From: Streptomyces sp. NBC_01217
Lineage (GTDB): Bacteria > Actinomycetota > Actinomycetes > Streptomycetales > Streptomycetaceae
Length of the DNA stretch: 64,000 nt
NCBI RefSeq assembly: GCF_035994185.1
Contig: NZ_CP108538.1
Coordinates: 3,100,001-3,164,000, forward strand
Direction: 5' to 3'
Shown here: positions 10,810-44,551 of the stretch, piece by piece
Layout: each line of letters begins with the position of its first letter
Position numbering within the stretch: the stretch's first letter is position 1
Made by a program: the position numbers and the translations under genes
Notes under the pieces: model-generated
Database searches by the model: none
Seen by the model: the letters and a program-made list of their open reading frames with translations, nothing else
Told to the model about the DNA's origin: nothing

Positions 10810-10816
10810 CACCGCG

Positions 10817-11770: not shown

Positions 11771-12674
11771 CGTGGCGCAGGCTCTCGACACCCTCAAGGC
11801 GGCCGGCCCCGCGCCCGACCCGGTCACCCCGGCCGAGCGCACGGCCCGCCGCAAGACGCTGCTGCACTGGATCGCCGTGCACTCGCTCGGCGTCGCCGCC
11901 GCGCTCTTCTTCGTGCTGCCGTTCGTCTTCCTCCTGCTCACCTCGCTGATGAGCGACCAGCAGGCGCTGACCCGCGATCTGTGGCCTCACCCCTTCGAGT
12001 GGAGCAACTACAGGAAGGTGTTCGACACCCCGGGCTTTCTGACCTGGTGGAAGAACACCCTGCTGTACGCGGGCCTCGGCACCGTCCTCACGGTCGTGTC
12101 GTCGCTGCCCGTGGCGTACGCGCTCGCCAAGTTCCGCTTCCGCGGGCGGCATCTGTCGCTGATGCTCGTCATCTCGATGATGATGCTGCCGCCGCAGGTC
12201 GTCGTCATCCCGATGTATCTGTTCTGGGCGAAGCAGCTGGACATGTCCGGCACGCTCTGGCCGCTGATCATCCCGATGGCCTTCGGTGACGCGTTCTCCA
12301 TCTTCCTGCTGCGGCAGTTCCTGCTGACCATCCCGAACGAGTACCTCGACGCGGCGAGGGTCGACGGCTGCGGCGAACTGCGCACCCTGCTCAAGGTCGT
12401 GGTGCCGATGGCCAGACCGGGCATCGCCGCCGTCGCGCTCTTCCAGTTCTTCTACGCCTGGAACGACTACTTCGGACCGCAGATCTACGCCTCCGAGAAC
12501 CCGGCCGCCTGGACGCTCAGTTACGGCCTGGAATCCTTCAAGGGCGCACACCACACCGACTGGAACCTGACCATGGCCGCGACCGTACTGGTCATGGCCC
12601 CTGTGATCCTCGTCTTCTTCTTCGCTCAAAAGGCTTTTGTCGAGGGCGTCACACTGACCGGAGTAAAGGGCTGA
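11763..12674 (+). CDS. csnG: Sugar ABC transporter permease (MalG type)
   Basis: This is the second channel subunit (303 aa), with six predicted membrane helices and the EAA-like loop EYLDAARVDGCGELRTLLKV near residues 194-213. The GTG at 11763 overlaps the end of csnF. A second in-frame GTG at 11772 is possible. It is followed after 3 bp by the GH4 gene, so the importer and intracellular processing enzymes are one transcription unit. Confidence 0.92.
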   Translation: MSDVAQALDTLKAAGPAPDPVTPAERTARRKTLLHWIAVHSLGVAAALFFVLPFVFLLLTSLMSDQQALTRDLWPHPFEWSNYRKVFDTPGFLTWWKNTLLYAGLGTVLTVVSSLPVAYALAKFRFRGRHLSLMLVISMMMLPPQVVVIPMYLFWAKQLDMSGTLWPLIIPMAFGDAFSIFLLRQFLLTIPNEYLDAARVDGCGELRTLLKVVVPMARPGIAAVALFQFFYAWNDYFGPQIYASENPAAWTLSYGLESFKGAHHTDWNLTMAATVLVMAPVILVFFFAQKAFVEGVTLTGVKG

Positions 12675-12677
12675 CCT

Positions 12678-13943
12678 ATGAAGCTCGCAGTAGTTGGTGG
12701 CGGGTCCACCTACACACCTGAACTGATCGACGGCTTCGCCCGGCTGCGGGACACGCTGCCCATCGAGGAACTCGTCCTCGTCGACCCGGCGGCCGACCGT
12801 CTCGAACTCGTCGGCGGCCTCGCCCGGCGGATCTTCGCCAAGCAGGGCCACCCGGGGAGGATCGTCACCACCTCGGACCTCGACGCGGGCGTCGACGGCG
12901 CCGACGCGGTCCTGCTCCAGCTGCGCGTCGGTGGCCAGGCCGCCCGCAACCAGGACGAGACCTGGCCGCTGGAGTGCGGCTGCATCGGCCAGGAGACCAC
13001 CGGGGCCGGCGGCCTCGCCAAGGCGCTGCGCACCGTGCCCGTCGTCCTGGACATCGCCGAGCGGGTCCGCCGCACCAACCCGGACGCCTGGATCATCGAC
13101 TTCACCAATCCGGTCGGCATCGTCACCCGTGCGCTGCTCCAGGCCGGGCACAAGGCCGTCGGCCTGTGCAACGTGGCGATCGGCTTCCAGCGGAAGTTCG
13201 CCCGGCTCCTCGATGTCACCCCCGGCGAGGTACACCTCGACCATGTCGGGCTCAACCATCTGACCTGGGAGCTCGGGGTCCGGCTCGGCGGCCCGGACGG
13301 CGAGAACGTCCTGCCGAAGCTGCTCGCCGAGCACGGCGACGCGATCGCCGACGATCTGCACATGCCGCGGGCGATCGTCGACCGGCTCGGCGTCGTCCCC
13401 TCGTACTACCTGCGGTACTTCTACGCGCACGACGAGGTCGTACGGGAACTCGGCACCAAGCCGTCCCGGGCGGCCGAGGTCGCCGCGATGGAGAAGGAGC
13501 TCCTCGCCATGTACGGCGACCCGGCGCTGGACGAGAAGCCCGCACTGCTCGCCAAGCGCGGCGGCGCCTTTTACTCGGAGGCGGCCGTGGACCTGGCGTC
13601 CTCGCTGCTCGGCTCGGGCGGCTCGGCGGTGCAGGTCGTCAACACGTACAACAGGGGGACGCTGCCGTTCCTGCCGGACGACGCGGTGATCGAGGTGCAG
13701 GCCCGGGTCGACGGCACGGGCGCGACGCCGCTCGCCGTTCCCGAGCTGGATCCGCTGTACGCCGGCCTGATCTCCCATGTGACGGCGTACGAGGACCTCG
13801 CCCTGGAAGCCGCGCTGCGCGGGGGCCGCGAGCGGGTCTTCAAGGCGCTGCTCGCGCACCCGCTGATCGGCCAGTTCGAGTACGCCGAGGCGCTCACCGA
13901 CAAGCTGATCGCGCACAACCGGGAGCACCTGGCGTGGGCGTGA
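12678..13943 (+). CDS. csnH: GH4-family glycosidase (6-phospho-beta-glucosidase-like)
   Basis: A 421-residue NAD- and divalent-metal-dependent glycosidase of family GH4. It begins with the dinucleotide-binding motif KLAVVGGGSTYTPEL. The family metal/catalytic elements are visible: TNPVGIVT, LCNVAIGFQ with the metal-ligand Cys, and HVGLNHLTW with the metal-ligand His. In the csn context it is expected to cleave imported (possibly phosphorylated) glucosamine oligosaccharides inside the cell. The exact substrate cannot be read from sequence; 6-phospho-beta-glucosidase is the generic annotation. An AAGGG lies just before the start. Confidence 0.9.
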   Translation: MKLAVVGGGSTYTPELIDGFARLRDTLPIEELVLVDPAADRLELVGGLARRIFAKQGHPGRIVTTSDLDAGVDGADAVLLQLRVGGQAARNQDETWPLECGCIGQETTGAGGLAKALRTVPVVLDIAERVRRTNPDAWIIDFTNPVGIVTRALLQAGHKAVGLCNVAIGFQRKFARLLDVTPGEVHLDHVGLNHLTWELGVRLGGPDGENVLPKLLAEHGDAIADDLHMPRAIVDRLGVVPSYYLRYFYAHDEVVRELGTKPSRAAEVAAMEKELLAMYGDPALDEKPALLAKRGGAFYSEAAVDLASSLLGSGGSAVQVVNTYNRGTLPFLPDDAVIEVQARVDGTGATPLAVPELDPLYAGLISHVTAYEDLALEAALRGGRERVFKALLAHPLIGQFEYAEALTDKLIAHNREHLAWA

Positions 13944-15246: not shown

Positions 15247-16638
15247 GTGACACACCCGCCGAATGTACGTACGGCGCCGGAACACGCGCGGGCGCAGCCG
15301 CCCGTGCCCGCGACCGTACCCGCTCCGCCACAGCGCGGGGCCCGGTCCGCGACGGCGGAGCGGCTGCGGACCGCGGCGACGACCGAACCGGGCAGGCTGC
15401 AGATCATCGGGGCCGTACTGGCCCTGCTCGTCGTCGCGTTCGGGGCCGTGACGGCGTTCGAGATCGCCGACCGGGCGGCCGCGGCCGATGACGTGGTGAG
15501 CCGCAGCCAGCCGCTGAGCGCCGACGCGGCGGACATCTACCGCTCGCTGGCCGATGCCGACACCGCGGCGGCGAGCGGCTTCCTGGCCGGGGCACAGGAG
15601 CCGCGCGATGTCCACGACCGGTACGACAAGGACATCGAGGAGGCGTCCCGGCTGCTGGTGAAGGCCGCGGCCAACACGGACGCGTCGACGGCCTCCGGGC
15701 ACGAGATCACCACGCTCAACGTGGAACTCCCCCGGTACGCGGGCCTGATCGAGCGGGCCCGCGCCAACAACCGGCAGGGTCTGCCGCTGGGCGGTGCCTA
15801 TCTCCGGTACGCGAACCAGAAGATGACCAATGTGCTGCTGCCGGCCGCCGAGCGGCTGTACACGGCGGAGACCGGGCGGCTCGACCGGGACAACGACTCG
15901 GCCAGGGCCTGGCCGTTCTTCTCGCTCGGGCTCGGTGTCGTCGCGCTGGCCGGACTGCTCTGGGCTCAGCGGCGCAACTACCGCAGGACGAACCGGGTCT
16001 TCAACCAGGGGCTGCTCGTCGCGACCGCCGCGTCCACCGTCGTCCTGCTGTGGCTGGCCGTGGGGCACACGGTTGCGCGTGCCGAACTGCTGGACGCCGA
16101 TGTGCACGGGCAGCAGTCCCTCGATGTCCTCAACCACGCGCGGATCGACTCGCTCAAGGCGCGCGCGAATGAGAACCTCACTCTTGTCGCCCGTGGCGCG
16201 GTGCTCACCGCGGACGGCAGGAACGACAAGTACGAGACCGACTACAGCACGGGGATGAAGGCTCTCGGTGCAGAGCTGGGGAAAGCCAGGAAGCTTGCCG
16301 ACGACTCCCAGGGGAGCGGGCCGGTGGCGAACGCCATCAACGGTGTCTCCGAGTGGCAGGGCCGCCACCGGACCGCCCGCACGACCGACGACAGCGGCGA
16401 CTACGAGGGCGCGCTGAAGCAGATCATCGGGCCGAAGGACTCCACGGGTGAGTCCTTCAACCGGGTGGACGAGGCGCTGAAGCAGGCACTCGCCCATGAA
16501 CAGGGCGAATTCACCCGGGCCGCGAAGGACGGGCGCGGGGCGCTGGGCGGGCTGCCGGTCGGGGCCTCGGCGCTCGCCGCGCTGGCGGCCCTCGCCGCCA
16601 TCGTCGGGGTCAACCGCAGGCTCTCGGAGTACCGGTGA
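15247..16638 (+). CDS. GlnX-like four-helix membrane protein
   Basis: A 463-residue membrane protein starting at GTG 15247 after a strong GAGGGGGAGG. Predicted helices lie at about 58-80, 220-240, 257-278 and 433-453, leaving two extracytoplasmic, mostly helical domains between helices 1-2 and 3-4. The cytoplasmic N-terminus is Pro/Ala-rich. Topology and position, immediately before a GlnH-like binding protein and close to a PknG-like kinase, match mycobacterial GlnX, which relays amino-acid binding by GlnH to PknG. The assignment rests on context and topology and not on a specific motif. The next gene follows after 11 bp. Confidence 0.75.
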   Translation: MTHPPNVRTAPEHARAQPPVPATVPAPPQRGARSATAERLRTAATTEPGRLQIIGAVLALLVVAFGAVTAFEIADRAAAADDVVSRSQPLSADAADIYRSLADADTAAASGFLAGAQEPRDVHDRYDKDIEEASRLLVKAAANTDASTASGHEITTLNVELPRYAGLIERARANNRQGLPLGGAYLRYANQKMTNVLLPAAERLYTAETGRLDRDNDSARAWPFFSLGLGVVALAGLLWAQRRNYRRTNRVFNQGLLVATAASTVVLLWLAVGHTVARAELLDADVHGQQSLDVLNHARIDSLKARANENLTLVARGAVLTADGRNDKYETDYSTGMKALGAELGKARKLADDSQGSGPVANAINGVSEWQGRHRTARTTDDSGDYEGALKQIIGPKDSTGESFNRVDEALKQALAHEQGEFTRAAKDGRGALGGLPVGASALAALAALAAIVGVNRRLSEYR

Positions 16639-16649
16639 GAGGGGGAGCG

Positions 16650-17690
16650 ATGACCAGGAAGAGCACGGGCCCCCGGGCCGACCGCAGGCTGCGTGGCTGG
16701 GGTGGGGTGACCGGCATGGCCGTGGCCTGCGCGGTGACGGCCTCGCTCACCCTGCTGCCGCTCTCCCACGGCGGCGCCGACGCCTTCGTCGGGGACTCCT
16801 CCGGACCGGACACGGCGCAGGCGGTGCAGGCCCGGGCCGACGACTGCACCGACCCGGAGGCGAGCCTGCCGCCGTCGAGCGCCGACGGTCCGAGCATCGC
16901 GAAGATCAAGACGCGCGGAAAGCTGATCGCGGGCGTCGACCAGAACAGCTTCCGCTGGGGCTACCGCAACCCGGAGACCGGAAAGCTCGAAGGCTTCGAC
17001 ATCGATCTGGTGCGGGCCATCGCCGAGGACATCCTGGGCGATCCCGACGCGGTGATCTTCCGGGCCATCCCCACCAATCAGCGGATCGCCGCCCTGGAGA
17101 ACGACAAGGTCGACGTCGTCGTCCGGACGATGACGATCAACTGCACCCGGCTGGACCAGGTCTCGTTCTCCACGGCCTACTTCCAGGCCGGGCAGCAGGT
17201 CCTCGCGCCGAAGGGCTCACCGATCACCGGGTTCGACAAGTCCCTTGCAGGCAAGCGGGTCTGCACCGCCGAGGGCTCCACCGCCTACGAGGCACTGGAG
17301 AAGCAGTCGTTCGGCTCGGTCTTCAAGGACGAGCACGACAGCACCGAGGCGGACGAGGACCGGCTCACCGTCCCCAACCAGCTGGACTGCCTGGTACGGC
17401 TGCAGCTGGGCGAGGTCGACGCGGTGGTCACGGACAACGCGCTGGGGGCCGGCCAGGCCGCCCAGGACCCGGCGGTCGAGCTCAAGGGCGACAAGCCGTT
17501 CACCACCGAGTACTACGGCGTGGCGACGAAGCGCGGTGCGAACGATCTGGTGGCCCGGGTCAATCAGGTGCTGGTCGACTACCGCAGGGGAGGTGCGGAC
17601 AGCCCCTGGATGGTGTCGTACCGGAAGTGGCTGGAGGCCGGTCTGCCGGGGATATCGGCGCCACCGGCCCCCAAGTACCGGAGCAACTAG
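16650..17690 (+). CDS. GlnH-like amino-acid-binding protein
   Basis: A 346-residue periplasmic-type solute-binding protein (SBP family 3) with the amino-acid-binding signature GKLEGFDIDLVRAIAED (about 109-125). An N-terminal hydrophobic segment (about 20-42) serves as signal or anchor; its only Cys is too early in the segment to be a convincing lipobox. No ABC permease or ATPase gene is nearby, so it is probably a sensor and not a transporter part, as with mycobacterial GlnH, which binds Asp/Glu. ATG 16650 follows GAGGGGGAG; a GTG at 16635 overlapping the previous gene is the alternative. Confidence 0.82.
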   Translation: MTRKSTGPRADRRLRGWGGVTGMAVACAVTASLTLLPLSHGGADAFVGDSSGPDTAQAVQARADDCTDPEASLPPSSADGPSIAKIKTRGKLIAGVDQNSFRWGYRNPETGKLEGFDIDLVRAIAEDILGDPDAVIFRAIPTNQRIAALENDKVDVVVRTMTINCTRLDQVSFSTAYFQAGQQVLAPKGSPITGFDKSLAGKRVCTAEGSTAYEALEKQSFGSVFKDEHDSTEADEDRLTVPNQLDCLVRLQLGEVDAVVTDNALGAGQAAQDPAVELKGDKPFTTEYYGVATKRGANDLVARVNQVLVDYRRGGADSPWMVSYRKWLEAGLPGISAPPAPKYRSN

Positions 17691-17794
17691 CGCCGGGCCG
17701 GCCAGGTGTGCGCGACAGCGCGCGACCGGACCGGCGAGGCAGTGGCACTGATCCTGCCGGGCCCGTCCCGGCAGGAAGAGCGGAGAGATGATCG

Positions 17795-19120
17795 ATGGGC
17801 GTCGCGGGCCCCTTCCCCGGCTACGCGGGGAGGCCCCCCGGCCCGGTCATGGACCGGGACGAGGCGGACCGTGCGCTGGCCCGGCTGGACGCGGAGCACG
17901 AGGCTATCGAGACCTCGCTCCTCGCCCTGCAGGACCACGCGGGCCGCCGGCTCCTGGAGGGCGCCGATCTGACCGGTGTCACCAAGGAACGCTGGGCCTC
18001 CACCGAGCAGTCGATCACGCTGCTGTGGGGATATTTCGACGCCTACGCGGGGGCGCTGTCCGAGGCGCGCGCGGTGCGGTCCCGCCGCCGCCACCCCAAC
18101 CGGGAGGACCTGATGGCCCTCACCGAGCTGCTGCGCGGCCAGGGCGTCACCGTGGCGCACGCGGCGGGTCGCCCCGATCCGTCGATCACGGGCCCGGCCA
18201 GGCTCTCCGAGCGGTTCACGCTGGAGGAGCTGGTCGCCCGGATGAACGACCTGTACGCCCGCTCGCTGGACATGGTCGTCGCCTCCGACTCCGTGTGGTC
18301 CGCGCTGCCCGCCCGGATAGACCTCCTCGCCGCCGAGCTGCACCGCACCCGCTCGCTGGCGCACTCCGTCGGCGTAAGGCCCGGTGAGCACCCGGCGGGT
18401 GACGACCTGGAGGCGATCACCCAGGAGCTGACCACGCTGCGGGTCCAGGTGATCTCCGATCCGCTAGCGTTCTGGCTGTCGGGCCCGGGGAGTTCGGCGC
18501 CCGGCGGCGGACGCCCCGACACGACACGATACGACCGGGCGGCCCGCGCGCTCGACGACGTACGCCGTGAGATCGAGGCGGTGCTCGCGGTCCGGCAGGA
18601 CGCCGAGCAGCGCCTGGTCCACCTGCGTGACGTCCTCTCCCGCGCGGACCGCACCCTGGCCGAGGCCCGGTCGGCGCGCGGGGAGGTGCTGGCGAAGATC
18701 GCCGCCTCGGAGGTGCCCGCGGTCAGCGGTCCGGCGACCGCGCTCCAGGAGCGGCTGGCCGCCGCTTCGGAGTACCGCAGGCATGCCCAGTGGCACCGGC
18801 TCTCCCCGCTCCTGGAGACGCTGGAGCGGGAGGCCGAGGAGGAGTTGCTGCGGGCCCGCGAGTCGCTGACCGCGGTCACGGCCCCGCTGGCCGTACGGGC
18901 GGAACTGCGCGGCAGGCTCGACGCGTACAAGGCGAAGATCGCCCAGCACGGGCTGGCCGAGGACCCGCTGCTGATCGAGCGGTACGACGCGGCGCGGCGC
19001 ATGCTGTGGAGCGCGCCGTGCGATCTGCGGGTCGCCGCGCAGACGGTGCTGCGCTATCAGGAGGCGGCGGCCGAACTGCTGTCCCAGCGCCGGACCTCGG
19101 GACCGGAGGACCGGCGATGA
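17795..19120 (+). CDS. Coiled-coil protein of the PknG-like operon, function unknown
   Basis: A 441-residue soluble protein rich in Ala, Arg, Glu and Leu with long heptad-like helices (about 10-60, 130-210, 235-345, 350-440). It has no membrane segment, Cys motif or catalytic signature. It sits 104 bp after the GlnH-like gene and about 60 bp before the kinase gene. No member of the mycobacterial glnX-glnH-pknG operon corresponds to it. A scaffold or a link between the membrane sensor and the kinase is an inference from position only. ATG 17795 is supported by GGAGAG upstream. Confidence 0.75.
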   Translation: MGVAGPFPGYAGRPPGPVMDRDEADRALARLDAEHEAIETSLLALQDHAGRRLLEGADLTGVTKERWASTEQSITLLWGYFDAYAGALSEARAVRSRRRHPNREDLMALTELLRGQGVTVAHAAGRPDPSITGPARLSERFTLEELVARMNDLYARSLDMVVASDSVWSALPARIDLLAAELHRTRSLAHSVGVRPGEHPAGDDLEAITQELTTLRVQVISDPLAFWLSGPGSSAPGGGRPDTTRYDRAARALDDVRREIEAVLAVRQDAEQRLVHLRDVLSRADRTLAEARSARGEVLAKIAASEVPAVSGPATALQERLAAASEYRRHAQWHRLSPLLETLEREAEEELLRARESLTAVTAPLAVRAELRGRLDAYKAKIAQHGLAEDPLLIERYDAARRMLWSAPCDLRVAAQTVLRYQEAAAELLSQRRTSGPEDRR

Positions 19121-19181
19121 GCACGGACGGATGCAAGGTGGAAGGGCCGCGGCAGCGGCGGGGCGAACAGGGGGACGGACC

Positions 19182-22019
19182 ATGAGTACGCAGTGCCAGC
19201 GCCCCGCGTGCGAGGGCAGTTACGAGGACATGGGCGGCGGTGAGCTGTACTGCGACACCTGCGGTCTGGCTCCGGTCGTCTCGCCGACGGGCATGGTGAG
19301 TTCGCCGCCCACCGGGATCGCGGGCGGCGGTGCGAGCAGCAGGGGCAGCCGGGGCAGCGACAGCAGTTCGCGTTCCTCGTCCCGGGCGTCCTCGCGTTCC
19401 TCTTCGCGCTCGTCGACGTCGCGGCGTTCCGTTTCGGGACGGCTCTCGCGCTCGGTGTCCGGTGGAGCCACGTCCCGTTCGGTGTCGGTGCGTTCCTCCG
19501 GTTCGTCCACAGGCGCGTCGGGCCGGGGCAGGCTGGGTGCGGGCCTGGTGCAGGTGCCGGACGTGCCGCGTCCCGACCCGCGCTCGGCGGTGATGGAGAA
19601 CCCGGAGGTGCCGGAGCGCAAGCGGTTCTGTTCGCGTTCGGACTGCGGGGCCCCGGTGGGCCGGGCCCGCGGCGAACGGGCGGGCCGCACGGAGGGGTTC
19701 TGCACCAAGTGCGGTCACCCCTACTCCTTCGTGCCCAAGCTCCACGAGGGCGACATCGTGCACGGCCAGTACGAGGTCGCGGGCTGTCTGGCGCACGGCG
19801 GTCTCGGCTGGGTCTATCTCGCGGTCGACCGCGCGGTCTCGGACCGCTGGGTGGTCCTCAAGGGCCTGCTCGACACCGGTGACCAGGACGCCATGGCGGC
19901 CGCCATCTCGGAGCGCCGATTCCTCGCCGAGATCGAGCACTCCAACATCGTCCGGATCTACAACTTCGTCGAGCATCTCGACCAGCGCACCGGCTCGCTC
20001 GACGGCTACATCGTGATGGAGTACGTCGGCGGCAAGGCGCTCAAGGAGATCGCGAACGAGCGCCGCACGCCGGCCGGGAGACGCGATCCCCTGCCGGTCG
20101 AGCAGGCGTGCGCGTACGGCATCGAGGCGCTGGAGGCGCTCGGCCATCTGCACAGCCGCAACCTGCTGTACTGCGACTTCAAGGTCGACAACGCGATCCA
20201 GACCGAGGACCAGCTGAAGCTGATCGACATGGGCGCGGTCCGCAGGATGGACGACGACGAGTCGGCCATCTACGGCACGGTGGGGTATCAGGCACCGGAG
20301 GTCGCGGAGGTCGGCCCCTCGGTCGCCTCCGATCTGTACACGGTCGCGCGGACGCTCGCGGTGCTCACCTTCGACTTCCAGGGCTATACCAACGTCTTCG
20401 TGGACTCGCTGCCGGACCCGGACAACATCGAGGTGTTCCGGACCTATGAGTCGTTCTACCGGCTGCTGGTGCGGGCCACCGACCCCGACCCGGCGCAGCG
20501 GTTCGCCTCGGCGGCGGAGATGGCGGAGCAGCTGACGGGTGTGCTGCGCGAGGTGGTGTCGCTTCAGACGGGGCGGCCGCGCCCTGCGCTGTCGACGCTG
20601 TTCGGCACGGAAGTACGGGTCACGGACACGCAGTTGTTCGCCGAGCTGACGGACGATGTGTCGCGGCTGGGGACACGGGCTGCCGCTCCGGCGCCGTCGG
20701 GCCGCTTCGGACGGCGGCGGAAGGGGGCGGGTACTCTGACAGGGACGGGGGCGGGGGCGGTCCCGGGCGCACCCGCAGTGCCGTCCGCAGCGCCGGGGCC
20801 CGGTGCACTGCCCGCGGGTGCGCCGGCGACGGGTGCTCCGACCGCGCCGGGGTACGCCGCGGCGGGCGCCGGTCCGCTGACCGCGCCGCCCACCCACGTA
20901 CGGGCGGGCAGCGGTACGGGCCCGGCGGCCGTGCAGGGCGGTACGGCCCTCTCGTACGCGCAGACCCGGGTCGCGATTCCGGCGCCCCGGATGCCGGTCA
21001 CCGATCCCGGTGCGCCCTCCGGGACGTACACCGGGCAGTACGCCCCGGCCGCGCCCCGGCTGACCTGGTTCGACGCACGGTCCACCGCGCTCGCGCTGCC
21101 CGTGCCCCGGGTCGACGCGAGCGATCCCAACGCGGGCTTCCTGGCCGGGCTGATGACCACCGCCCCCGCTGAACTGATCACGGTGCTGAGCGCCATACCG
21201 GCCGCCTCGCTGGAGACCCGGCTGCGTGAACTGCGCGCGCGTCTGGAGCTGCACGAACTCGGCGCCGCGGGGCAGACCCTGACGGCGCTGGAGGGGCAGT
21301 TCCCGGACGACTGGCGGGTCGTCTGGTACCGCGGCATCACCTCGCTGGTGACCGGTGACCACGAGAACGCGGCGCTCTCCTTCGACGCGGTGTACGACGC
21401 GTTTCCCGGGGAGCCGGCGCCCAAGCTGGCGCTGGGGATCTGCGCGGAGGTGCTGGGCCAGCTGGACAACGCCGCCGAGTACTACCGCCTGGTGTGGACG
21501 ACCGACCCGAGCTTCGTCAGCGCCGCGTTCGGCCTGGCCCGGGTGCAGATCGCCGCCGGGGACCGGGCCGGGGCCGTCAGTACGCTGGAGTCCGTGCCGG
21601 AGGCGTCGATCCACTACACGGCGGCCCGGGTCGCCGCGGTGCGTGCCCGGCTGCGTGAACGGGCCCCGGACGAGCCGCTGATCGTCGACCTGATGGCCGC
21701 ATCGGCCCAGGTATCGGGACTGGCCGGCCTGGGTCTCGACGCGGTGCGCCGCGAACAGTTGTCGACAGAGGTGCTGGGGACGGCCCTCGACTGGGTACTC
21801 TCCGGTAGTCCCACGGCTGCGTCCCCGGCGCGGCAGCCGCACGGACCGGCCGGACCGCACGCGCCGAGAACGCTGCTCGGCAGTGAGGTGGACGAGCGCG
21901 GCCTGCGTTTCGGGCTCGAGCGTTCGTACCGGATGCTCGCCCGGCTTGCGGAGCCCGGCGACGAGAGGATCGAACTGGTGGAGCGGGCCAACCGCTTCCG
22001 CCCCCGGACGTGGGTGTGA
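19182..22019 (+). CDS. PknG-like serine/threonine protein kinase with zinc ribbons and TPR tail
   Basis: A 945-residue soluble kinase starting at ATG 19182 after GGGGGA. An N-terminal Cys cluster (about 5-30, CDTCG) is followed by a Ser/Arg low-complexity stretch (about 48-125) and a rubredoxin-like Cys module ending in CTKCG (about 145-182). The kinase domain spans about 193-460. Its Gly loop is HGGLGWVY, the catalytic Lys is at about 227 (VVLK), the catalytic loop YCDFKVDN has Asp332 with no preceding Arg, and the DFG position reads Asp349-Met-Gly. A Pro/Ala/Gly linker and TPR-like helices (about 680-945) follow. This rubredoxin-kinase-TPR order is that of mycobacterial PknG. The PP2C gene overlaps or abuts its stop. 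Confidence 0.92.
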   Translation: MSTQCQRPACEGSYEDMGGGELYCDTCGLAPVVSPTGMVSSPPTGIAGGGASSRGSRGSDSSSRSSSRASSRSSSRSSTSRRSVSGRLSRSVSGGATSRSVSVRSSGSSTGASGRGRLGAGLVQVPDVPRPDPRSAVMENPEVPERKRFCSRSDCGAPVGRARGERAGRTEGFCTKCGHPYSFVPKLHEGDIVHGQYEVAGCLAHGGLGWVYLAVDRAVSDRWVVLKGLLDTGDQDAMAAAISERRFLAEIEHSNIVRIYNFVEHLDQRTGSLDGYIVMEYVGGKALKEIANERRTPAGRRDPLPVEQACAYGIEALEALGHLHSRNLLYCDFKVDNAIQTEDQLKLIDMGAVRRMDDDESAIYGTVGYQAPEVAEVGPSVASDLYTVARTLAVLTFDFQGYTNVFVDSLPDPDNIEVFRTYESFYRLLVRATDPDPAQRFASAAEMAEQLTGVLREVVSLQTGRPRPALSTLFGTEVRVTDTQLFAELTDDVSRLGTRAAAPAPSGRFGRRRKGAGTLTGTGAGAVPGAPAVPSAAPGPGALPAGAPATGAPTAPGYAAAGAGPLTAPPTHVRAGSGTGPAAVQGGTALSYAQTRVAIPAPRMPVTDPGAPSGTYTGQYAPAAPRLTWFDARSTALALPVPRVDASDPNAGFLAGLMTTAPAELITVLSAIPAASLETRLRELRARLELHELGAAGQTLTALEGQFPDDWRVVWYRGITSLVTGDHENAALSFDAVYDAFPGEPAPKLALGICAEVLGQLDNAAEYYRLVWTTDPSFVSAAFGLARVQIAAGDRAGAVSTLESVPEASIHYTAARVAAVRARLRERAPDEPLIVDLMAASAQVSGLAGLGLDAVRREQLSTEVLGTALDWVLSGSPTAASPARQPHGPAGPHAPRTLLGSEVDERGLRFGLERSYRMLARLAEPGDERIELVERANRFRPRTWV

Positions 22020-22021
22020 GA

Positions 22022-23362
22022 ATGTCACAGAAGCCCCAGGAGACGGCCTTGTCGAAGTGCCCCGGCTGTGCGGAGCCGCTGGAGCCGGGGGACCTGTTCT
22101 GCGGTGCGTGCGGGTACGACCTGTCGGCCGTGCCCGAGCCTGCGCAGGACCACCCGACGATCGCCATCGCCGTACCGGCGGAGAACGGCACGGCGGCCGC
22201 CGCCCGCACTCCGTCGGGGTTCCGGTTCGACGAGCCGGGCGGTGCGGAAGGACCGGGCGGGCCGGAAGACCCGGCCGCCTCGGGCGACTTCGAGCTGGCG
22301 GCACCCGGGGCCACGCCTGGTGCCGCGCCCGTGTCCGCGCCGTCCGCCGAGGCATCCGCGCCGGCACCCGTATCCACGCCCGATCCCCGTACCCCTGCCG
22401 CGGAGCTGCACTCCACACCACCGGCCGGCACCAAGCTCTGTGTCGCCTGCCGCGCCGGTCGTGTCGACACCGACGGCTACTGCGAGAACTGCGGTCACGC
22501 CCAGCCGCGCGAGCGCGACCACATGGAGCAGGAGCTCGGTTCGGTGGCCGCCGTCAGCGACCGGGGTCTGCGCCACCACCGCAACGAGGACTCGTTCGCG
22601 GTGTCGACCACCGCCCTGCCCGACGGTTCACCGGCCGTCGTCGCGATCGTCTGCGACGGCGTCTCGTCGGCGAGCCGCCCCGACGAGGCGTCGGCCGCCG
22701 CCGCGAGCGCCGCCAACGAGGCGCTGCTGGAGTCACTGCCGCGCGGCACGCATCCGCAGCAGGCGATGCACGAGGCGATCGTCGCGGCCGCCGAGTCGGT
22801 CAACTCCCTGGCGGAGGAGCCCGGCCGGGCCATGGAGCACGACCCGCACCGCCACCAGAACGCCCCCGCGTGCACCCTGGTCGGCGCGGTGATGGCGGGC
22901 GGCCTGCTGGTCATCGGCTGGGTTGGCGACAGCCGCGTCTACTGGGTGCCGGAGGACCGCACCACTCCGCCCGCCCGGCTGACCGAGGACGACTCCTGGG
23001 CCGCGCAGATGGTGGCGGCGGGCCTGATGAACGAGGCCGAGGCGTACGCGGACGAGCGCGCCCACGCCATCACGGGCTGGCTCGGCGCCGACGCGTACGA
23101 ACTGGAGCCGCACACCGCGTCCTTCAAACCCGACCGGTCCGGTCTCGTGGTGGTGTGCACGGACGGCCTGTGGAATTACGCGGAGTCGGCGGCCGAGATG
23201 GCCGCGGCGGTACCGGCCGACGCACAGCTGCGGCCGCTGCACGGCGCCCAGGTGCTGGTGGGTCACGCGCTCGACGGTGGGGGCCACGACAACGTAACAG
23301 TGGCTCTGCTGCCGTTCACCGTGGCGCCGCAAGGGGCAGGATCGGCCTGCGGCACCCCATGA
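22022..23362 (+). CDS. PP2C-family protein phosphatase with zinc ribbons
   Basis: A 446-residue predicted Mn/Mg-dependent Ser/Thr phosphatase, likely to reverse the action of the adjacent kinase. Two zinc ribbons precede the catalytic domain: CPGCAE...CGACG (about 13-35) and CVACRA...CENCG (about 140-160), separated by a Pro/Ala-rich linker. The PP2C domain (about 175-440) shows SDRGLRHHRNEDSF, VCDGVSSASRPDEAS, WVGDSRVYWV, CTDGLWNY and GGHDNVTVAL, which supply the metal-binding Asp residues. The VCDGMGG element is altered to VCDGVSS. The start is ATG 22022; in-frame GTGs at 22010 and 22016 overlap the kinase stop, so coupling is likely. Confidence 0.9.
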   Translation: MSQKPQETALSKCPGCAEPLEPGDLFCGACGYDLSAVPEPAQDHPTIAIAVPAENGTAAAARTPSGFRFDEPGGAEGPGGPEDPAASGDFELAAPGATPGAAPVSAPSAEASAPAPVSTPDPRTPAAELHSTPPAGTKLCVACRAGRVDTDGYCENCGHAQPRERDHMEQELGSVAAVSDRGLRHHRNEDSFAVSTTALPDGSPAVVAIVCDGVSSASRPDEASAAAASAANEALLESLPRGTHPQQAMHEAIVAAAESVNSLAEEPGRAMEHDPHRHQNAPACTLVGAVMAGGLLVIGWVGDSRVYWVPEDRTTPPARLTEDDSWAAQMVAAGLMNEAEAYADERAHAITGWLGADAYELEPHTASFKPDRSGLVVVCTDGLWNYAESAAEMAAAVPADAQLRPLHGAQVLVGHALDGGGHDNVTVALLPFTVAPQGAGSACGTP

Positions 23363-23486
23363 GTCCCGTTCCGTAACGCTTGATTCCGTTTCCACCCGAC
23401 CGCGTGTTCCCTGACGCCTTCGCCCGTTTTTTTCTGCCCTCACAGCTGTCTTCAACCGACACCTGGAGCCTCAAGGAGCCGATCAG

Positions 23487-24845
23487 ATGGCCAACTTCTC
23501 CAAGTCGAACGTGCCGCAGTTCTCCGTCGAGGTGTACCAGAACGAATATCTGCCGGAGGGCGGCCGCGAGGTCAACGCGATCGTCACGGTCACCTCGACC
23601 GGAGGCGGCACCACCGGCGGCGTCCCGCTGTCCGGTGCGACCGCCTCCCCCGCGCACGTACCGGGGCAGGCACCGAAGGCCGCCGTGGTGATCATGGTCG
23701 ACTGCTCGGGGTCGATGGACTATCCGCCGACGAAGATGCGCAACGCCCGCGATGCGACGGCCGCGGCCATCGACACCCTGCGCGACGGCACCTCGTTCGC
23801 CGTGGTCGGCGGTACGCATGTGGCCAAGGAGGTCTACCCGGGCAACGGCAGGCTCGCCGTCGCCGATGCGCGGACCAAGGCCCAGGCGAAGGAGGCCCTG
23901 CGTGCGCTCAGCGCCGGCGGCGGTACGGCGATCGGCACCTGGCTGCGGCTGGCGGACCGGCTGCTGGGCGCCGCCGATGTGGAGATCCGGCACGGCATCC
24001 TCCTCACCGACGGCCGCAACGAGCACGAGGCACCGGAGGATCTGCGGGCCGCGCTCGAATCCTGCGCGGGCCGCTTCACCTGTGACGCCCGCGGTGTCGG
24101 CACCGACTGGGAGGTGAAGGAGGTCACGGCCATAGCCTCCGCGCTGCTCGGCACGGCCGACATCGTCGCCGACCCGGCGGGGCTGGCCGCGGACTTCACA
24201 CAGATGATGGAGAACGCGATGGGCAAGGAGGTCGCGGACGTCGCGCTGCGGCTCTGGACGCCCGTCGGCGTCGAGATCAGGTTCGTGAAACAGGTCGCAC
24301 CGACGGTCGTCGACCTGACCGGCCGCCGCACCGGGGTGGGCCCCCGCGCCGGGGACTATCCCACGGGTTCCTGGGGCGACGAGTCCCGCGACTACCACGT
24401 CTGCGTACAGGTGCCGCAGGCCGGGATCGGTCAGGAGATGCTGGCGTCCCGGGTCTCACTGGTCCTCCCCGACCCCTCGGGCGGGGCCCCGCAGACCCTT
24501 TCGCAGGGCCTGGTACGGGCGGTGTGGACCGAGGACATGGTCGCGTCCACCTCGATCAACCCTCAGGTCGCGCACTACACGGGGCAGGCGGAACTGGCAC
24601 AAGTCATCCAACAGGGGCTCGATGCCCGCAAGTCGGGAGATTTCGACGGCGCGACCGCGAAACTGGGCCGTGCGGTGCAGCTGGCATCGGCGTCCGGGAA
24701 CGAGGACACTGCGAAACTGCTTTCGAAGGTGGTGGACGTCGTCGATGCCGCGACAGGTACTGTGCGACTGAAGGCGAAGGTCGCGGAAGCCAACTCGATG
24801 ACACTCGAAACACGCTCGACCAAGACCGTTCGCGTCAAGAAATAA
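23487..24845 (+). CDS. vWA-domain protein of the PknG-like operon
   Basis: A 452-residue cytoplasmic-looking protein without signal or membrane segment. A short N-terminal beta region leads into a von Willebrand factor A domain (about 65-250). Its complete MIDAS motif is D72-C-S74-G-S76, with further Thr (GGGTAIG) and Asp (LLTDGRN) ligands, so metal-dependent protein binding is expected. A beta-rich domain and a C-terminal helical TPR-like segment (about 370-420) follow. AAGGAG precedes the ATG. It may be the adaptor that couples the kinase/phosphatase pair to a target; the partner is not known. Confidence 0.88.
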   Translation: MANFSKSNVPQFSVEVYQNEYLPEGGREVNAIVTVTSTGGGTTGGVPLSGATASPAHVPGQAPKAAVVIMVDCSGSMDYPPTKMRNARDATAAAIDTLRDGTSFAVVGGTHVAKEVYPGNGRLAVADARTKAQAKEALRALSAGGGTAIGTWLRLADRLLGAADVEIRHGILLTDGRNEHEAPEDLRAALESCAGRFTCDARGVGTDWEVKEVTAIASALLGTADIVADPAGLAADFTQMMENAMGKEVADVALRLWTPVGVEIRFVKQVAPTVVDLTGRRTGVGPRAGDYPTGSWGDESRDYHVCVQVPQAGIGQEMLASRVSLVLPDPSGGAPQTLSQGLVRAVWTEDMVASTSINPQVAHYTGQAELAQVIQQGLDARKSGDFDGATAKLGRAVQLASASGNEDTAKLLSKVVDVVDAATGTVRLKAKVAEANSMTLETRSTKTVRVKK

Positions 24846-24965
24846 CCGGGAACAACCACACAGCCACACAGTCGAGCCGCCCGGCCGGATCGATCCGCCG
24901 GGTGGCACTGAGCAACAAAAAATGACGGCCCCCGGGGCCGGACGAGGAGAGGGGGAAGCGCCGAC

Positions 24966-26174
24966 ATGCCGACCTGCCCGAACGGACACCAGTCGGGTTC
25001 CGACGACTGGTGCGAGGTCTGCGGCCATCGCATGGCCGGGGCGGGCGCGCCTGCGGGTGCAGTCCCCCCGCCGCCTCCCCCGCCGCCCGCTCCCGGTTAC
25101 GGCTACCCGCAGGGCCCCGGTGGCCCCGGCTCCGATGCGACCCAGCAGGCAGAACTCTGCCCGCAGTGCCGCACGCCGCGTGAGGCGATGGCGCCGTTCT
25201 GCGAGGAGTGCCGCTGGAACTTCCTCACGAACACCGCGACGTCCTACACGCCGCTGGCCCCGTCCCACAGCATTCCGGCCCCTCCGCCCGGTCTCAATCT
25301 GCCGCCCGGCTTCCAGGCGCAGCAGCCGTCGGGCCCTCAGCAGCAGCGCGATCCGTTCGAGTACCAGGGCTCGCGGCCCTCGCAGGTGAACCGCCCGGCC
25401 GAGCCGCTCTCCCCCGACCAGGCGAGCCGGCCCGTACCCCCGCCGCCGGGGCCTCAGTCGCCGCAGCCGTTCCAGCAGCAGGGGCCGCCGCCTGTGCCGT
25501 CCTTCCAGCAGCAGACCGCGCCGCCCCCGCCGTTCCAGCAGCAGTCCCCGCCCTCGCCGTTCCAGCAGCAGTCGGCGCCGCCCGCGTTCGAGCGTCCCGG
25601 TCCGCCCGCGCCCCCGGCCCCGCAGCCGCCCGCACCGCCGCGGTCCGGCGACAACGACGACGACTGGATGCTGTCGCCGCCTTCCCGGACCCAGGCCCCG
25701 CAGCCACCGGCCCCGCCGCAGCAGCAGCATCAACCGCCGTTCCCGGGGCAGCCCCAGAGCCGGCAGCCCGCGAGCTGGACCGCGGTCGTCGCCCCGGACC
25801 GTGAGTACTTCCTGGCGATGATGCAGCGCAGCGGCCCCGAGGCGACCGGGCTCAACCTGCCCGCGTACTCCCCGGAGCAGCAGCTCGCACTGACCGGCAA
25901 CCAGATCACCATCGGCCGCCGCAGACACAGCACCGGTGAGTCCCCCGACATCGATCTGTCCGTGCCGCCGGAGGACCCGGGCGTCTCGCACCAGCACGCG
26001 GTGCTGGTGCAGCAGCCCGACGGAAGCTGGGCCGTGGTCGACCAGAACTCCACCAACGGCACCACGCTCAACGGCGCCGAGGACCCGATCCAGCCCTATG
26101 TCCCCGTTCCGCTCCAGGACGGCGACCGGGTCCATGTCGGGGCGTGGACGACGATCACGGTCCGCCGGGGCTGA
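24966..26174 (+). CDS. FHA-domain protein with zinc ribbons and Pro/Gln-rich linker
   Basis: A 402-residue protein built as a phosphothreonine reader. Two Cys ribbons lie at the N-terminus (CPNGHQSGSDDWCEVCG, about 3-20; CPQCRTPREAMAPFCEEC, about 65-82). A long low-complexity linker (about 95-275) follows, with repeated PFQQQ/SFQQQ motifs and many prolines. The C-terminal FHA domain (about 312-402) shows ITIGRRRHS, VSHQHAVL and STNGTTLNG. FHA proteins such as mycobacterial GarA are PknG substrates and effectors, so this is the best candidate readout of the operon's kinase. A strong GGAGAGGGGGA precedes the ATG. The gene ends 15 bp from a convergent gene. Confidence 0.9.
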   Translation: MPTCPNGHQSGSDDWCEVCGHRMAGAGAPAGAVPPPPPPPPAPGYGYPQGPGGPGSDATQQAELCPQCRTPREAMAPFCEECRWNFLTNTATSYTPLAPSHSIPAPPPGLNLPPGFQAQQPSGPQQQRDPFEYQGSRPSQVNRPAEPLSPDQASRPVPPPPGPQSPQPFQQQGPPPVPSFQQQTAPPPPFQQQSPPSPFQQQSAPPAFERPGPPAPPAPQPPAPPRSGDNDDDWMLSPPSRTQAPQPPAPPQQQHQPPFPGQPQSRQPASWTAVVAPDREYFLAMMQRSGPEATGLNLPAYSPEQQLALTGNQITIGRRRHSTGESPDIDLSVPPEDPGVSHQHAVLVQQPDGSWAVVDQNSTNGTTLNGAEDPIQPYVPVPLQDGDRVHVGAWTTITVRRG

Positions 26175-26189: not shown

Positions 26190-27179
26190 CTACCCGCTGG
26201 GCAGTGGCCAGGCGTACGGCCCCTCGGGGTCGTCCAGCCAGGCCCACTGCCGTCCGTCGCGGACCGTGATGCCGAACCTCTCCCGCCCTGGGCGCCGTTC
26301 GCGCTGCCAGAGGGAGAGGGCCTCGCGCGGGTCGAGGGTGGCCTCGGTCAGCGTCAGCAGGAAGCGGAAGAGCTCGTTCTCGCTGAAGCGCCTCGGCAGT
26401 GTGCGGGTGTGCGGGCGCCGGGCGGACGGCAGGGGCATGCCGCGCAGGGGTACGAAGTACGCGGGCGTGTGCAGGAACCGGCCCTCGGCGTACCGCCCGT
26501 GTGCCCCTTCGCGTACCCGCAGCACGATCAGTCCGGTGGCGAACGGCGCCAGAATCCGCGCGTCCGGGGCGCACTGGTCCAGCCAGGCCTGCGGGAAGCA
26601 CGGCAGTGTGCAGGTCGCGATGATCCGGTCGTACGGGCCGCGCGGGGGCCAGCCCCGGGCCCCGTCACCGGTGATCACCGCCGGGCGGTATCCGGCCGCC
26701 GTCAGGTGCCGGCGGGCCGATTCGGTGATCTCCGGGTCGAGGTCGATGGTGGTCACGGCGTCGTCGCCGAGCCGGTGCGCGAGCAGTGCCGCGTTGTAGC
26801 CGCTGCCCGCGCCGATCTCCAGGACCCGCTGCCCGTCCCGTACGTCCAGCTCTTCGAGCATCCGGGCCATCAGCGACGGCTGGCTGCTCGACGAGATCAG
26901 CTCACCGTCGCGGATCCGGGTGGCCAGCGCCCCGTCCGCGTACGCCCCGTGCAGCCACCGGGCCCGTCTGACCGGGTCGGGGTCCTCGCACCACAGGCGG
27001 TCGAATCCGCCGCCCACGTAGTAGTACGGCACGAACAGATGCCGCGGCACCTGTTCGAACGCGGCCAGCCACCGCGGGTCGCCCAGCGCCCCACCTGCCA
27101 CGATCCCGCGCACCATCGCCCGCCGTTCCTCGGCGGCGGCCTCGGCGAACGGGTCCGGGTCCGGGTACGCGTCATCCAT
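26190..27179 (-). CDS. PIMT-like SAM-dependent methyltransferase
   Basis: A 329-residue protein related to protein-L-isoaspartate O-methyltransferase. After an N-terminal region with [16 protein letters not shown] and [19 protein letters not shown], the SAM-binding motif [21 protein letters not shown] is seen at about 120-139, then the acidic motif TTIDLDPEI. The C-terminal 110 residues are extra relative to PIMT, so the substrate may differ (actinobacterial PIMT-like proteins are often of unknown target). The start ATG 27179 follows GGAGGT. It converges with the FHA gene and diverges from the globin gene. Confidence 0.88.
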
Positions 27180-27287
27180 ACCTCCACCTTCCTGCGCCGG
27201 GAGGCCGGGGGCCAGGAACCGGGCCGGGGCAGGTGGGGAGGACCTAGGACCCCGGTCCTCGGCCGGTGCGTCTGCGACGATGGACGG

Positions 27288-27692
27288 GTGACAGAGATTC
27301 CGCACGACACGCTGCAGGAGCAGACCTTCTACGAGCAGGTCGGCGGCGAGGAGACTTTCCGGCGCCTGGTGCACCGCTTCTACCAGGGGGTCGCCGAGGA
27401 CCCGCTGCTCCGGCCGATGTATCCGGAGGAGGAGCTCGGTCCGGCCGAGGAGCGGTTCAGGCTGTTCCTGATCCAGTACTGGGGCGGCCCCCGTACCTAC
27501 AGTGAGCAGCGCGGACATCCCCGGCTGCGGATGCGGCACGCTCCGTTCCGGGTGGACCGGGCGGCGCACGACGCATGGCTGAGCCATATGCGGGTCGCCC
27601 TGGACGAGCTCGGACTGGCGCCGGAGCACGAGCGGCAGCTGTGGGACTACCTCACCTATGCCGCCGCCTCGATGGTGAACACCGAGGGCTGA
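27288..27692 (+). CDS. Truncated haemoglobin (group II, GlbO-like)
   Basis: A 134-residue 2-over-2 globin that binds haem and O2/NO in the cytoplasm. Family features seen are [45 protein letters not shown], and the proximal His within LRMRHAPF. The Trp late in the helix G region (HDAWLSHM) fits group II. The start is GTG 27288; longer in-frame extensions run antisense through the divergent methyltransferase and are not credible. It is monocistronic. Confidence 0.93.
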
Positions 27693-27884
27693 GCACGCGC
27701 CTCCGCCCCCCGTCCGCCCCTTTCCGTCCTTCTCCACAAGTGCGGAATGCGTGCCTCCGTCTCCGGATAACGGTCACAATCCCATCAAGGTGTGCCCATA
27801 GGCGGTTTCCAACTGCATGTACCTCCTGACAGCATCCACATGACGCTGGGGGCGTGTGTGCAGTGAGGGTCCAAGGGGGCACGT

Positions 27885-44458: not shown

Positions 44459-44531
44459 GCCCCCGTAGCTCAGTGGATAGAGCAGGCGCCTTCTAAGCGC
44501 TTGGCCGCAGGTTCGAGTCCTGCCGGGGGCA
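44459..44531 (+). tRNA. tRNA-Arg (anticodon UCU)
   Basis: A 73-base cloverleaf. The acceptor GCCCCCG pairs with CGGGGGC, with discriminator A at 44531. The D-arm is GCTC/GAGC, the anticodon stem is GGCGC/GCGCT with loop CTTCTAA giving anticodon TCT (reads AGA), and the T-arm is CGCAG GTTCGAG TCCTGC. CCA is not encoded. A terminator with a T-run follows 20 bases later. AGA is a rare codon in high-GC genomes. Confidence 0.96.
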
Positions 44532-44551
44532 CTTCAGTCCAGCCGGTGTCG

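What the first reader, a model, noticed from the sequence alone, without database searches (positions are those of the whole stretch)
15247..26174. Extended PknG/GlnX/GlnH signalling operon with PP2C, vWA, FHA and a coiled-coil partner
Seven same-strand genes carry a four-helix membrane protein, an orphan amino-acid-binding protein, a coiled-coil protein, a rubredoxin-kinase-TPR protein, a PP2C phosphatase, a vWA protein and an FHA protein. The first two and the kinase match mycobacterial GlnX, GlnH and PknG, which sense Asp/Glu. The opposing phosphatase, phospho-reader and two unknown adaptors suggest a complete, reversible nutrient-sensing circuit larger than the mycobacterial one. No ABC permease accompanies the binding protein, so it is probably a sensor.
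Basis: partly seen in the sequence, partly recalled or inferred. Interest (0 to 1): 0.78.

Follow-up and report, generated by a model that had tools for sequence, protein, structure and literature searches.

The report
Seven-gene nutrient-sensing phosphorylation switch operon
A Streptomyces-type chromosome carries a seven-gene operon that joins a known amino-acid sensor kinase to four extra proteins resembling a starvation switch known from archaea, and the famous three-gene version in mycobacteria looks like a cut-down copy of it.

Summary
Confirmed: seven co-directional genes, GlnX-GlnH-coiled-coil-PknG-PP2C-vWA-FHA (15247-26174). GlnX, GlnH and PknG are homologues of the mycobacterial trio. 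The seven form one conserved unit: all seven in 60 of 119 fetched PknG loci (five family codes), reordered but still together in f89; flanking genes are, with one exception, conserved only in f1. Kinase trees favour the mycobacterial three-gene operon as a derived, reduced form. New lead: the vWA protein is a full-length homologue of 4FX5, whose fold the literature equates with archaeal ArnB/ArnE; the FHA protein has ArnA's zinc-finger+FHA layout; the kinase, like ArnC, has TPRs. So the operon holds the parts of an ArnA/ArnB/kinase/phosphatase nutrient switch. Across 83 vWA proteins the only non-MIDAS positions always Ser/Thr are S444 and T447 in the C-terminal tail, a candidate kinase site. 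Against one indivisible circuit: three genomes of the genus lost GlnX, PknG and vWA (and GlnH from the locus) but keep coiled-coil, PP2C and FHA; four f89 loci lost only vWA. GlnH keeps the acid-binding Arg, not mycobacterial Trp232. The Arn likeness is architectural; no phosphorylation was tested. New variant of a known kind.

The parts
15247..16638 (+). GlnX: membrane signal-transduction protein (GTG start; an upstream GTG at 15100 is also possible)
   Evidence: NF058618 483.8 bits vs cut-off 250; C-terminal RLxEYR-type end seen in long and short operon types in the rows shown
16635..17690 (+). GlnH: orphan family-3 amino-acid-binding protein
   Evidence: SBP_bac_3; 6h1u M. tuberculosis GlnH E 1.9e-49; pocket residues R150 and T165 kept (Arg147, Thr162 of M. 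tuberculosis), Trp232 replaced by Q249
17795..19120 (+). CC: all-helical scaffold without a sequence family; modelled as bundles of long helices
   Evidence: nothing above a cut-off; model pLDDT 88.7, pTM 0.71; no Foldseek match at E<=0.001
19131..22019 (+). PknG: Cys-rich N-terminus, Ser-rich linker, rubredoxin, kinase, TPR
   Evidence: PF16919, PF00069, PF16918; 2pzi; catalytic residues; N-terminus by eye
19521..19742 (+). PknG rubredoxin-like domain (four Cys)
22010..23362 (+). PP2C phosphatase with N-terminal zinc ribbons
   Evidence: PF13672; metal-binding Asp kept; CxxCG counts
23487..24845 (+). vWA protein, homologous over its full length to 4FX5 (ArnB/ArnE-type architecture: vWA, beta-sandwich, C-terminal helices)
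   Evidence: 4fx5 484 bits over residues 6-452; MIDAS residues in 83 of 83; fold equivalence from PMC6509490
24678..24818 (+). VWA_3_C C-terminal domain of the vWA protein
24804..24833 (+). vWA C-terminal tail LETRSTKTVR (residues 440-449), candidate phospho-acceptor; S444 and T447 are Ser/Thr in 83 of 83 rows
24966..26174 (+). FHA protein: N-terminal zinc ribbon (CPNGHxSxxxDWCEVCG), Pro-rich linker, C-terminal FHA
   Evidence: PF00498; phospho-binding residues; zinc-ribbon layout

Best explanation
The operon is a complete nutrient-controlled Ser/Thr phospho-switch. Sensing: extracytoplasmic GlnH binds an acidic amino acid and signals through membrane GlnX to the TPR domain of PknG (inferred from experiments on the mycobacterial and corynebacterial homologues). 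Switching: PknG phosphorylates the vWA protein, most likely on its Ser/Thr-containing C-terminal tail (S444/T445/T447), and also the separately encoded GarA/OdhI homologue with its ETTS motif. The zinc-ribbon+FHA protein holds the vWA protein loosely through its ribbon and tightly through FHA-phosphothreonine binding once it is phosphorylated, as ArnA does with ArnB. PP2C erases the mark. The helical coiled-coil protein is a scaffold coupled to PknG and the PP2C/FHA part. Shown here: the parts, their conserved linkage, conserved active sites, and the tail Ser/Thr. Inferred: every phosphorylation and binding step. The mycobacterial glnX-glnH-pknG operon is probably a reduced descendant that keeps only the sensor and the GarA branch.
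For: Linkage: 60 of 119 loci (60 of 105 genomes) have all seven; order permuted in f89 (CC-PknG-PP2C-vWA-FHA-GlnX-GlnH) yet still clustered; flanking stretches match only in f1, one f89 match excepted. Co-occurrence: 88 of 92 CC genomes have PknG among 394. Active sites: kinase Asp 116/116, PP2C GDSR Asp 85/85, vWA MIDAS 83/83, FHA Ser 81/81 and Arg 79/81. Arn-type architecture: 4fx5 homology, and 4FX5 has the tripartite fold of vWA2/ArnE (PMC6509490, passages); ArnA = zinc finger + FHA, ArnC = kinase with a TPR-like stretch, nutrient-dependent loose/tight switch (PMC12852372; abstract, passages, sections 6 and 9). The vWA profile also matches ArnB itself (8S05, E 8e-7, vWA domain only). Tail: the only alignment columns that are Ser/Thr in all 83 vWA rows are four in or beside the MIDAS and S444 and T447. 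vWA also stands next to divergent PknG paralogues (L075, L077-L079, L107, L158, L159) and went with PknG in three genomes, tying it to the kinase. GarA/OdhI homologue with ETTS in the same genome. Reduction: f3 short and f3 long kinases form one clade (100/98), nested among mostly long-type kinases when other kinases serve as outgroup.
Against: CC, PP2C and FHA persist without PknG and vWA in G369, G635 and G667; pN/pS of CC and PP2C there lies within the range of intact pairs, so they have some function without this kinase. Four f89 loci (L102, L114, L116, L119) keep PknG, PP2C and FHA without vWA, and no vWA orthologue was found elsewhere in those four genomes (G455 shows a fragment between PP2C and FHA). 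Six f7 loci and one f83 locus show no CC above 60 bits, only weak C-terminal matches in some. The tail Ser/Thr are conserved also where FHA is absent, so they track the kinase at best, not the FHA; a stricter tail pattern tracks FHA (74 of 75 versus 2 of 8), but the FHA-less rows are mostly divergent paralogues. Likeness to ArnB by sequence is no better than to unrelated vWA proteins: two animal vWA proteins score above it, the match stops at the vWA domain, and PF18571 rings in none of the controls, Sulfolobus included. ArnB's phosphosites lie in its helical bundle, not in a terminal tail. My own vWA model was poor (pLDDT 48.5). GlnH Trp232 is replaced.
Confidence: 0.45

Rival explanations
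1. CC-PP2C-FHA is an independent phospho-module serving several kinases, and GlnX-GlnH-PknG-vWA is a second module that shares the operon. The FHA protein reads other phosphoproteins and the PP2C is a general phosphatase.
For: Three f1 genomes keep CC, PP2C and FHA after losing the others; CC was found in all 40 same-genus genomes listed, PknG in 37 of them; the window genome has 23 further places over the Pkinase cut-off.
Against: The seven stay linked across families and after reordering; CC lies next to PknG even where GlnX/GlnH have moved; 88 of 92 CC genomes have PknG.
Confidence: 0.3
2. Plain PknG-GarA circuit: PknG phosphorylates only the distant GarA/OdhI homologue; the operon FHA protein docks on autophosphorylated PknG (Ser-rich N-terminus) as GarA does, PP2C resets it, and vWA/CC are scaffolds.
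For: GarA homologue with ETTS is encoded elsewhere; PknG has a Ser-rich N-terminal linker; recruitment of FHA substrates by PknG's phosphorylated N-terminus is known (PMC8546545, passages).
Against: Does not explain the invariant Ser/Thr in the vWA tail or the loss of vWA with PknG while FHA stays.
Confidence: 0.2
3. A conflict or stress triad (kinase, PP2C, vWA) of the TerY-P or GAP1-N2-associated kind that has recruited a nutrient sensor.
For: eLife 2020 (PMC7159879, passage) describes actinobacterial zinc-ribbon kinase + PP2C + vWA neighbourhoods in GTPase-centred conflict systems.
Against: At E<=0.01 no PADLOC model matches vWA, FHA, GlnX, GlnH or CC; the kinase matches many kinase models (27 families, 25 shown) and PP2C one weakly; PknG is in 37 of the 40 same-genus genomes listed; no GTPase gene was looked for.
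Confidence: 0.05

Closest known systems
PknG-GlnX-GlnH-OdhI/GarA pathway of Mycobacterium and Corynebacterium (PMC6069109, PMC9769921, PMC8546545; passages)
   Same: Homologous GlnX, GlnH, PknG in one operon; GarA/OdhI homologue with ETTS in the genome.
   Different: Four further linked genes (CC, PP2C, vWA, FHA); GlnH pocket Trp232 replaced. In Corynebacterium the phosphatase Ppp dephosphorylates OdhI (passage); that its gene lies elsewhere is recalled.
ArnA-ArnB-ArnC-PP2A switch of Sulfolobus (PMC6509490 passages; PMC12852372 abstract, passages, two sections; PMC7472852 listing only)
   Same: Zinc finger + FHA protein; vWA/beta-sandwich/C-terminal-helix protein; TPR-bearing Hanks kinase; a phosphatase; nutrient input.
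   Different: Bacterial, all in one operon, PP2C instead of PP2A, dedicated amino-acid receptor, extra coiled-coil protein; sequence likeness only at the level of vWA domains in general; candidate site in a tail, not in the bundle.
4FX5, vWA protein of Catenulispora acidiphila
   Same: Full-length homologue, 484 bits, with the same STKTVR tail.
   Different: A solved structure; I saw no function given for it in the passages read. Its own gene neighbourhood was not examined.
Kinase-PP2C-vWA neighbourhoods of GAP1-N2 systems (PMC7159879, passage)
   Same: Kinase, PP2C and vWA genes side by side in actinobacteria.
   Different: Conflict-system context with a GTPase; no PknG, GlnX, GlnH or FHA stated in the passage read.

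Membership tests
PknG kinase | Rubredoxin domain with four Cys | tested here: met
   PF16919; all four Cys in the window; first Cys in 115 of 116 rows
PknG kinase | Catalytic kinase residues and PknG TPR domain | tested here: met
   PF16918 291.6 bits; catalytic Asp 116/116, Lys 115/116
GlnX family | NCBIfam subfamily model NF058618 above cut-off | tested here: met
   483.8 vs 250 bits
GlnX, narrow equivalog NF041460 | Score above curated cut-off | tested here: not met
   180.5 vs 780 bits
GlnH Asp/Glu sensor | Contacts to the Asp side chain: Arg147, Thr162, Trp232 (M. tuberculosis numbering, PMC6069109) | tested here: inconclusive
   Arg 102/102; Thr kept in the window; Trp only in 15 of 102 (f3, f113), Gln in 34 of 35 f1 rows
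GlnH Asp/Glu sensor | Binds Asp/Glu | not testable with these tools
   needs a binding assay
OdhI/GarA (L032, outside the window) | NCBIfam NF041660 cut-off | tested here: not met
   190.5 vs 200 bits; ETTS motif and FHA region present by eye
ArnB-type vWA protein | vWA + split beta-sandwich + C-terminal helical bundle | tested here: inconclusive
   Only through homology to 4FX5 and its published likeness to vWA2/ArnE; own model too poor
ArnB-type vWA protein | Sequence homology to Sulfolobus ArnB over its length | tested here: inconclusive
   Profile A2 matches ArnB 8S05 at E 8.2e-7 over the vWA domain only, behind two animal vWA proteins; PF18571 rings in 0 of 14 controls, S. acidocaldarius among them
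ArnA-type FHA protein | N-terminal Cys4 zinc finger plus C-terminal FHA with phospho-binding residues | tested here: met
   CxxC before FHA in the open frame in 81/81, a stricter Cys pattern in 78/81; FHA Ser 81/81, Arg 79/81. Layout only; the ribbon types may differ
ArnA-ArnB switch | Phosphorylation-dependent FHA-vWA binding | not testable with these tools
   needs biochemistry
TerY-P and other PADLOC systems | Matches to system-specific models | tested here: not met
   vWA and FHA none; PP2C one weak match; kinase matches are to many kinase models

The most novel reading that the evidence does not exclude
Actinobacteria carry a full bacterial counterpart of the archaeal ArnA-ArnB starvation switch, wired in one operon to an extracytoplasmic amino-acid receptor through PknG. 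PknG was ancestrally the kinase of this switch, and the textbook mycobacterial and corynebacterial PknG-GarA pathway is the remnant after loss of the vWA/FHA/PP2C/coiled-coil arm.
Probability: 0.33. Interest if true: 0.82.

Novelty: new variant of a known kind. Interest (0 to 1): 0.68.

Why it matters
PknG is among the best-studied bacterial Ser/Thr kinases, yet it is known from three-gene operons. If the seven-gene form is ancestral, the model system lacks a whole output arm (an FHA/vWA switch and a dedicated phosphatase). It gives concrete PknG substrates to test (vWA tail), a named phosphatase, a role for the orphan 4FX5 protein family, and a link between amino-acid sensing and development or antibiotic production in Streptomyces. 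It would also show one architecture for nutrient switching in archaea and bacteria.

Tried and rejected

Voided results: residue and lipobox tallies had a reading-frame selection error; one search replaces the residue tallies, and repeats the gene-content tally with frame-correct hits and the same result. The lipobox count was not repeated. References had the same weakness; the 21 rows used for A1 aligned sensibly. One search stopped with a script error.

Rows dropped: trees used 76 of 116, 71 of 116 plus 11 of 22 outgroup kinases and 34 of 116; four low-scoring kinases (L076-L079) were left out of all trees. The fetched loci are my choice, not a random draw: 119 loci from 105 genomes, 104 of the 140 class-level PknG genomes and one; f3 is under-sampled; 19 stretches are shorter than 19 kb because of contig ends or my cut.
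Full report
The window lies at G000:C1:3100001-3164000 of a 9.03-Mb genome. Its genus code g1 is Streptomyces: of 80 vWA relatives at 81-96% identity, 79 records are titled Streptomyces, and the contig length of G107:C4 equals that of a S. cyaneofuscatus record.

WHAT IS THERE. Seven + strand genes at 15247-26174. Family scans give GlnX (NF058618, 483.8 bits against a cut-off of 250), a family-3 solute-binding protein, an unassigned helical protein (CC), a PknG with rubredoxin, kinase and PknG-TPR domains, a PP2C with zinc ribbons, a vWA protein with VWA_3_C, and a zinc-ribbon/FHA protein. Solved relatives are M. tuberculosis GlnH (E 1.9e-49) and PknG (E 5.3e-163). The genome has one PknG rubredoxin match and one GlnX. 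A GarA/OdhI homologue lies 1.6 Mb away (190.5 bits, just under the 200-bit cut-off); its ORF carries a zinc ribbon, the ETTS motif and an FHA region.

CONSERVATION. PknG_TPR was found in 140 of 394 class-level genomes at E<=1e-15. I fetched 119 PknG neighbourhoods from 105 genomes and searched them with iterative profiles of the seven proteins. Tally at 60 bits or more: all seven in 60 of 119 loci (f1 32, f89 15, f90 10, f3 2, f41 1). Six without CC: f89 5, f7 6, f83 1. Six without vWA: f89 4. GlnX+GlnH+PknG only: f3 11, f113 2, f90 3, f89 1. The remaining 26 loci hold other subsets; second PknG copies and stretches cut by contig ends are among them. Weak C-terminal CC matches exist in some f7 and f83 genomes. 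In f89 (contig lengths and protein names point to Nocardiopsis and Thermomonospora) the order is CC-PknG-PP2C-vWA-FHA-GlnX-GlnH; the unit survives reordering. In f41, a family outside the class (kinship 'same phylum'), all seven are present with GlnH and GlnX on the opposite strand. Of eleven flanking stretches tested, matches were confined to f1 except one f89 match; one stretch had none. CC was found in 92 of 394 genomes at E<=1e-10, 88 of them with PknG; 52 genomes have PknG without CC (Fisher p 3e-45, not corrected for relatedness).

ACTIVE SITES. Kinase catalytic Asp 116/116 and Lys 115/116; PP2C metal Asp 84-85 of 85; vWA MIDAS 83/83; FHA Ser 81/81, Arg 79/81. PP2C shows DGVS where DGxG is usual (recalled) in 80 of 85. 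GlnH: Arg147-equivalent 102/102, but Trp232-equivalent is Trp only in f3 and f113 (15 rows, two of them long-type), Gln in 34 of 35 f1 rows, Tyr in 27 of 27 f89 rows, mostly aliphatic in f90. So acidic-ligand binding is plausible, but specificity may differ from the mycobacterial protein.

EVOLUTION. In a 34-row careful tree the f3 short kinases and f3 long kinases form one clade (100/98), and holding the f3 and f113 short kinases together as one group is rejected (p-AU 0.0015); I chose that group after seeing the earlier tree. In a kinase-domain tree rooted on 11 other kinases of the window genome, the f3 clade lies inside a 65-row clade that includes the f1, f7, f90 and most f89 long types; the order of branches inside it is unresolved, deep branches are long and the root is unsure. 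The simplest account is that the seven-gene form is older and was cut down at least twice; the alternative needs independent gain of the same four genes in the same places. This was not tested with a species tree.

NATURAL LOSS. Three g1 genomes (G369, G635, G667) have no PknG_TPR at E<=1e-15, no full GlnX and no vWA orthologue beyond fragments in G369. In their 20-kb neighbourhoods GlnH is in fragments (G369) or not found (G635, G667; not searched genome-wide), and short PknG remnants are seen, while CC (70-77% identity), PP2C and FHA remain as open frames. For CC and PP2C, pN/pS in pairs of these genomes lies within the range of intact pairs; for FHA two of three pairs do, but G369-G667 (0.46) exceeds it (maximum 0.37), so FHA may be relaxed in G667. 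Conversely, four f89 loci keep six genes without vWA, and no orthologue was found elsewhere in those genomes. The operon therefore has separable parts. vWA's fate follows the kinase's in f1 but not in those f89 loci; divergent PknG paralogues L075, L077-L079, L107, L158 and L159 also have a vWA neighbour.

MECHANISTIC LEAD. The vWA protein is homologous over its length to 4FX5 (484 bits). Hoffmann et al. 2019 (PMC6509490, passages) report that archaeal vWA2, the ArnB paralogue now called ArnE, has the same tripartite structure as 4FX5, that ArnA has an N-terminal zinc finger before its FHA domain, and that ArnA binds the C terminus of ArnB. Watad et al. 2026 (PMC12852372; abstract, passages, sections 6 and 9) describe a loose, zinc-finger-mediated and a tight, FHA-pThr-mediated ArnAB complex controlled by the kinase ArnC, which has a TPR-like stretch, by PP2A and by nutrients; in the discussion they cite the Catenulispora protein as a structural orthologue and say that this architecture is mostly not tied to multi-phosphorylation. 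The present operon encodes the same set side by side: TPR kinase, phosphatase, 4FX5-type vWA, zinc-ribbon+FHA. In an alignment of 83 vWA proteins the only columns that are Ser/Thr in every row are four in or beside the MIDAS (74, 76, 147, 174) and S444 and T447 in the C-terminal tail. This holds with FHA and PP2C (74 rows) and without (7 rows), so it is a candidate phospho-acceptor tracking the kinase. My earlier pattern test suggesting FHA-specific conservation is not upheld by the aligned columns. By sequence the vWA profile matches ArnB (8S05) at E 8.2e-7 over the vWA domain only, weaker than two animal vWA proteins, and PF18571 finds nothing in the Sulfolobus acidocaldarius control; so I claim likeness of architecture and logic, not family membership. 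CC is modelled confidently as bundles of long helices, with no informative structural relative.

LITERATURE. Bhattacharyya et al. 2018 (PMC6069109, passages) state that sensor, signalling and effector proteins are conserved including Streptomyces; in the main text held the words phosphatase, von Willebrand and coiled do not occur; their operon figure was not seen. Searches for PknG with von Willebrand and Streptomyces, PknG, FHA, PP2C and Streptomyces, GlnX and Streptomyces, GarA/OdhI/Streptomyces/PknG, PknG/Streptomyces/phosphoproteome, vWA/FHA/PP2C/kinase/operon and Arn terms with Streptomyces and PknG listed no paper that by its title, abstract start or the passages I read describes this seven-gene operon or its ArnAB likeness. 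Only open-licence PMC papers were searched, and most listed papers were not opened. GarA phosphorylation at ETTS in Saccharopolyspora (PMC12321487, passages) supports an active GarA branch outside mycobacteria.

VERDICT. Real, conserved and only partly known. All phosphorylation and binding steps remain untested.

Noticed in passing
L075, L077, L078, L079: Divergent second PknG-like kinases in g1 genomes are followed by a vWA gene without PP2C or FHA; these vWA proteins end in a cysteine-rich, zinc-ribbon-like stretch.
   Followed up: partly
L201, L202, L203 (G369, G635, G667): Three g1 genomes of 6.1-6.3 Mb show decay or loss of GlnX, GlnH, PknG and vWA at the locus with CC, PP2C and FHA kept.
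   Followed up: yes
L032:1483-2583 (-), G000:C1:1484973-1485305: The GarA/OdhI homologue also has an N-terminal zinc ribbon plus ETTS, like a compact version of the operon FHA protein.
   Followed up: partly
L134, L144: Two GlnH-type genes in tandem in f90 loci, perhaps sensing two ligands.
   Followed up: no
window 26190-27737 (-): PCMT-like methyltransferase gene next to the operon, matched in 32 of 40 f1 loci and in no other family fetched.
   Followed up: partly
window 9472-13943 (+): Upstream genes that look like a sugar ABC transporter (one permease shown by Pfam) and a family-4 glycosidase (by eye); matches in f1 only, apart from one f89 match.
   Followed up: partly
hits H2-H5: PknG homologues (42-49% identity) lie on records listed as plasmids in Tsukamurella and Nocardia.
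   Followed up: no
L087, L096: Two f3 genomes (G719, G640) with several PknG copies each carry a seven-gene copy; G719 also has a separate short glnX-glnH-pknG locus (L084).
   Followed up: partly
G455:C8:35892-36209 (in L102): A vWA fragment remains between PP2C and FHA in a vWA-less f89 locus.
   Followed up: partly
window 44459-44532 (+): tRNA-Arg (tct), the only tRNA gene found in the window.
   Followed up: no
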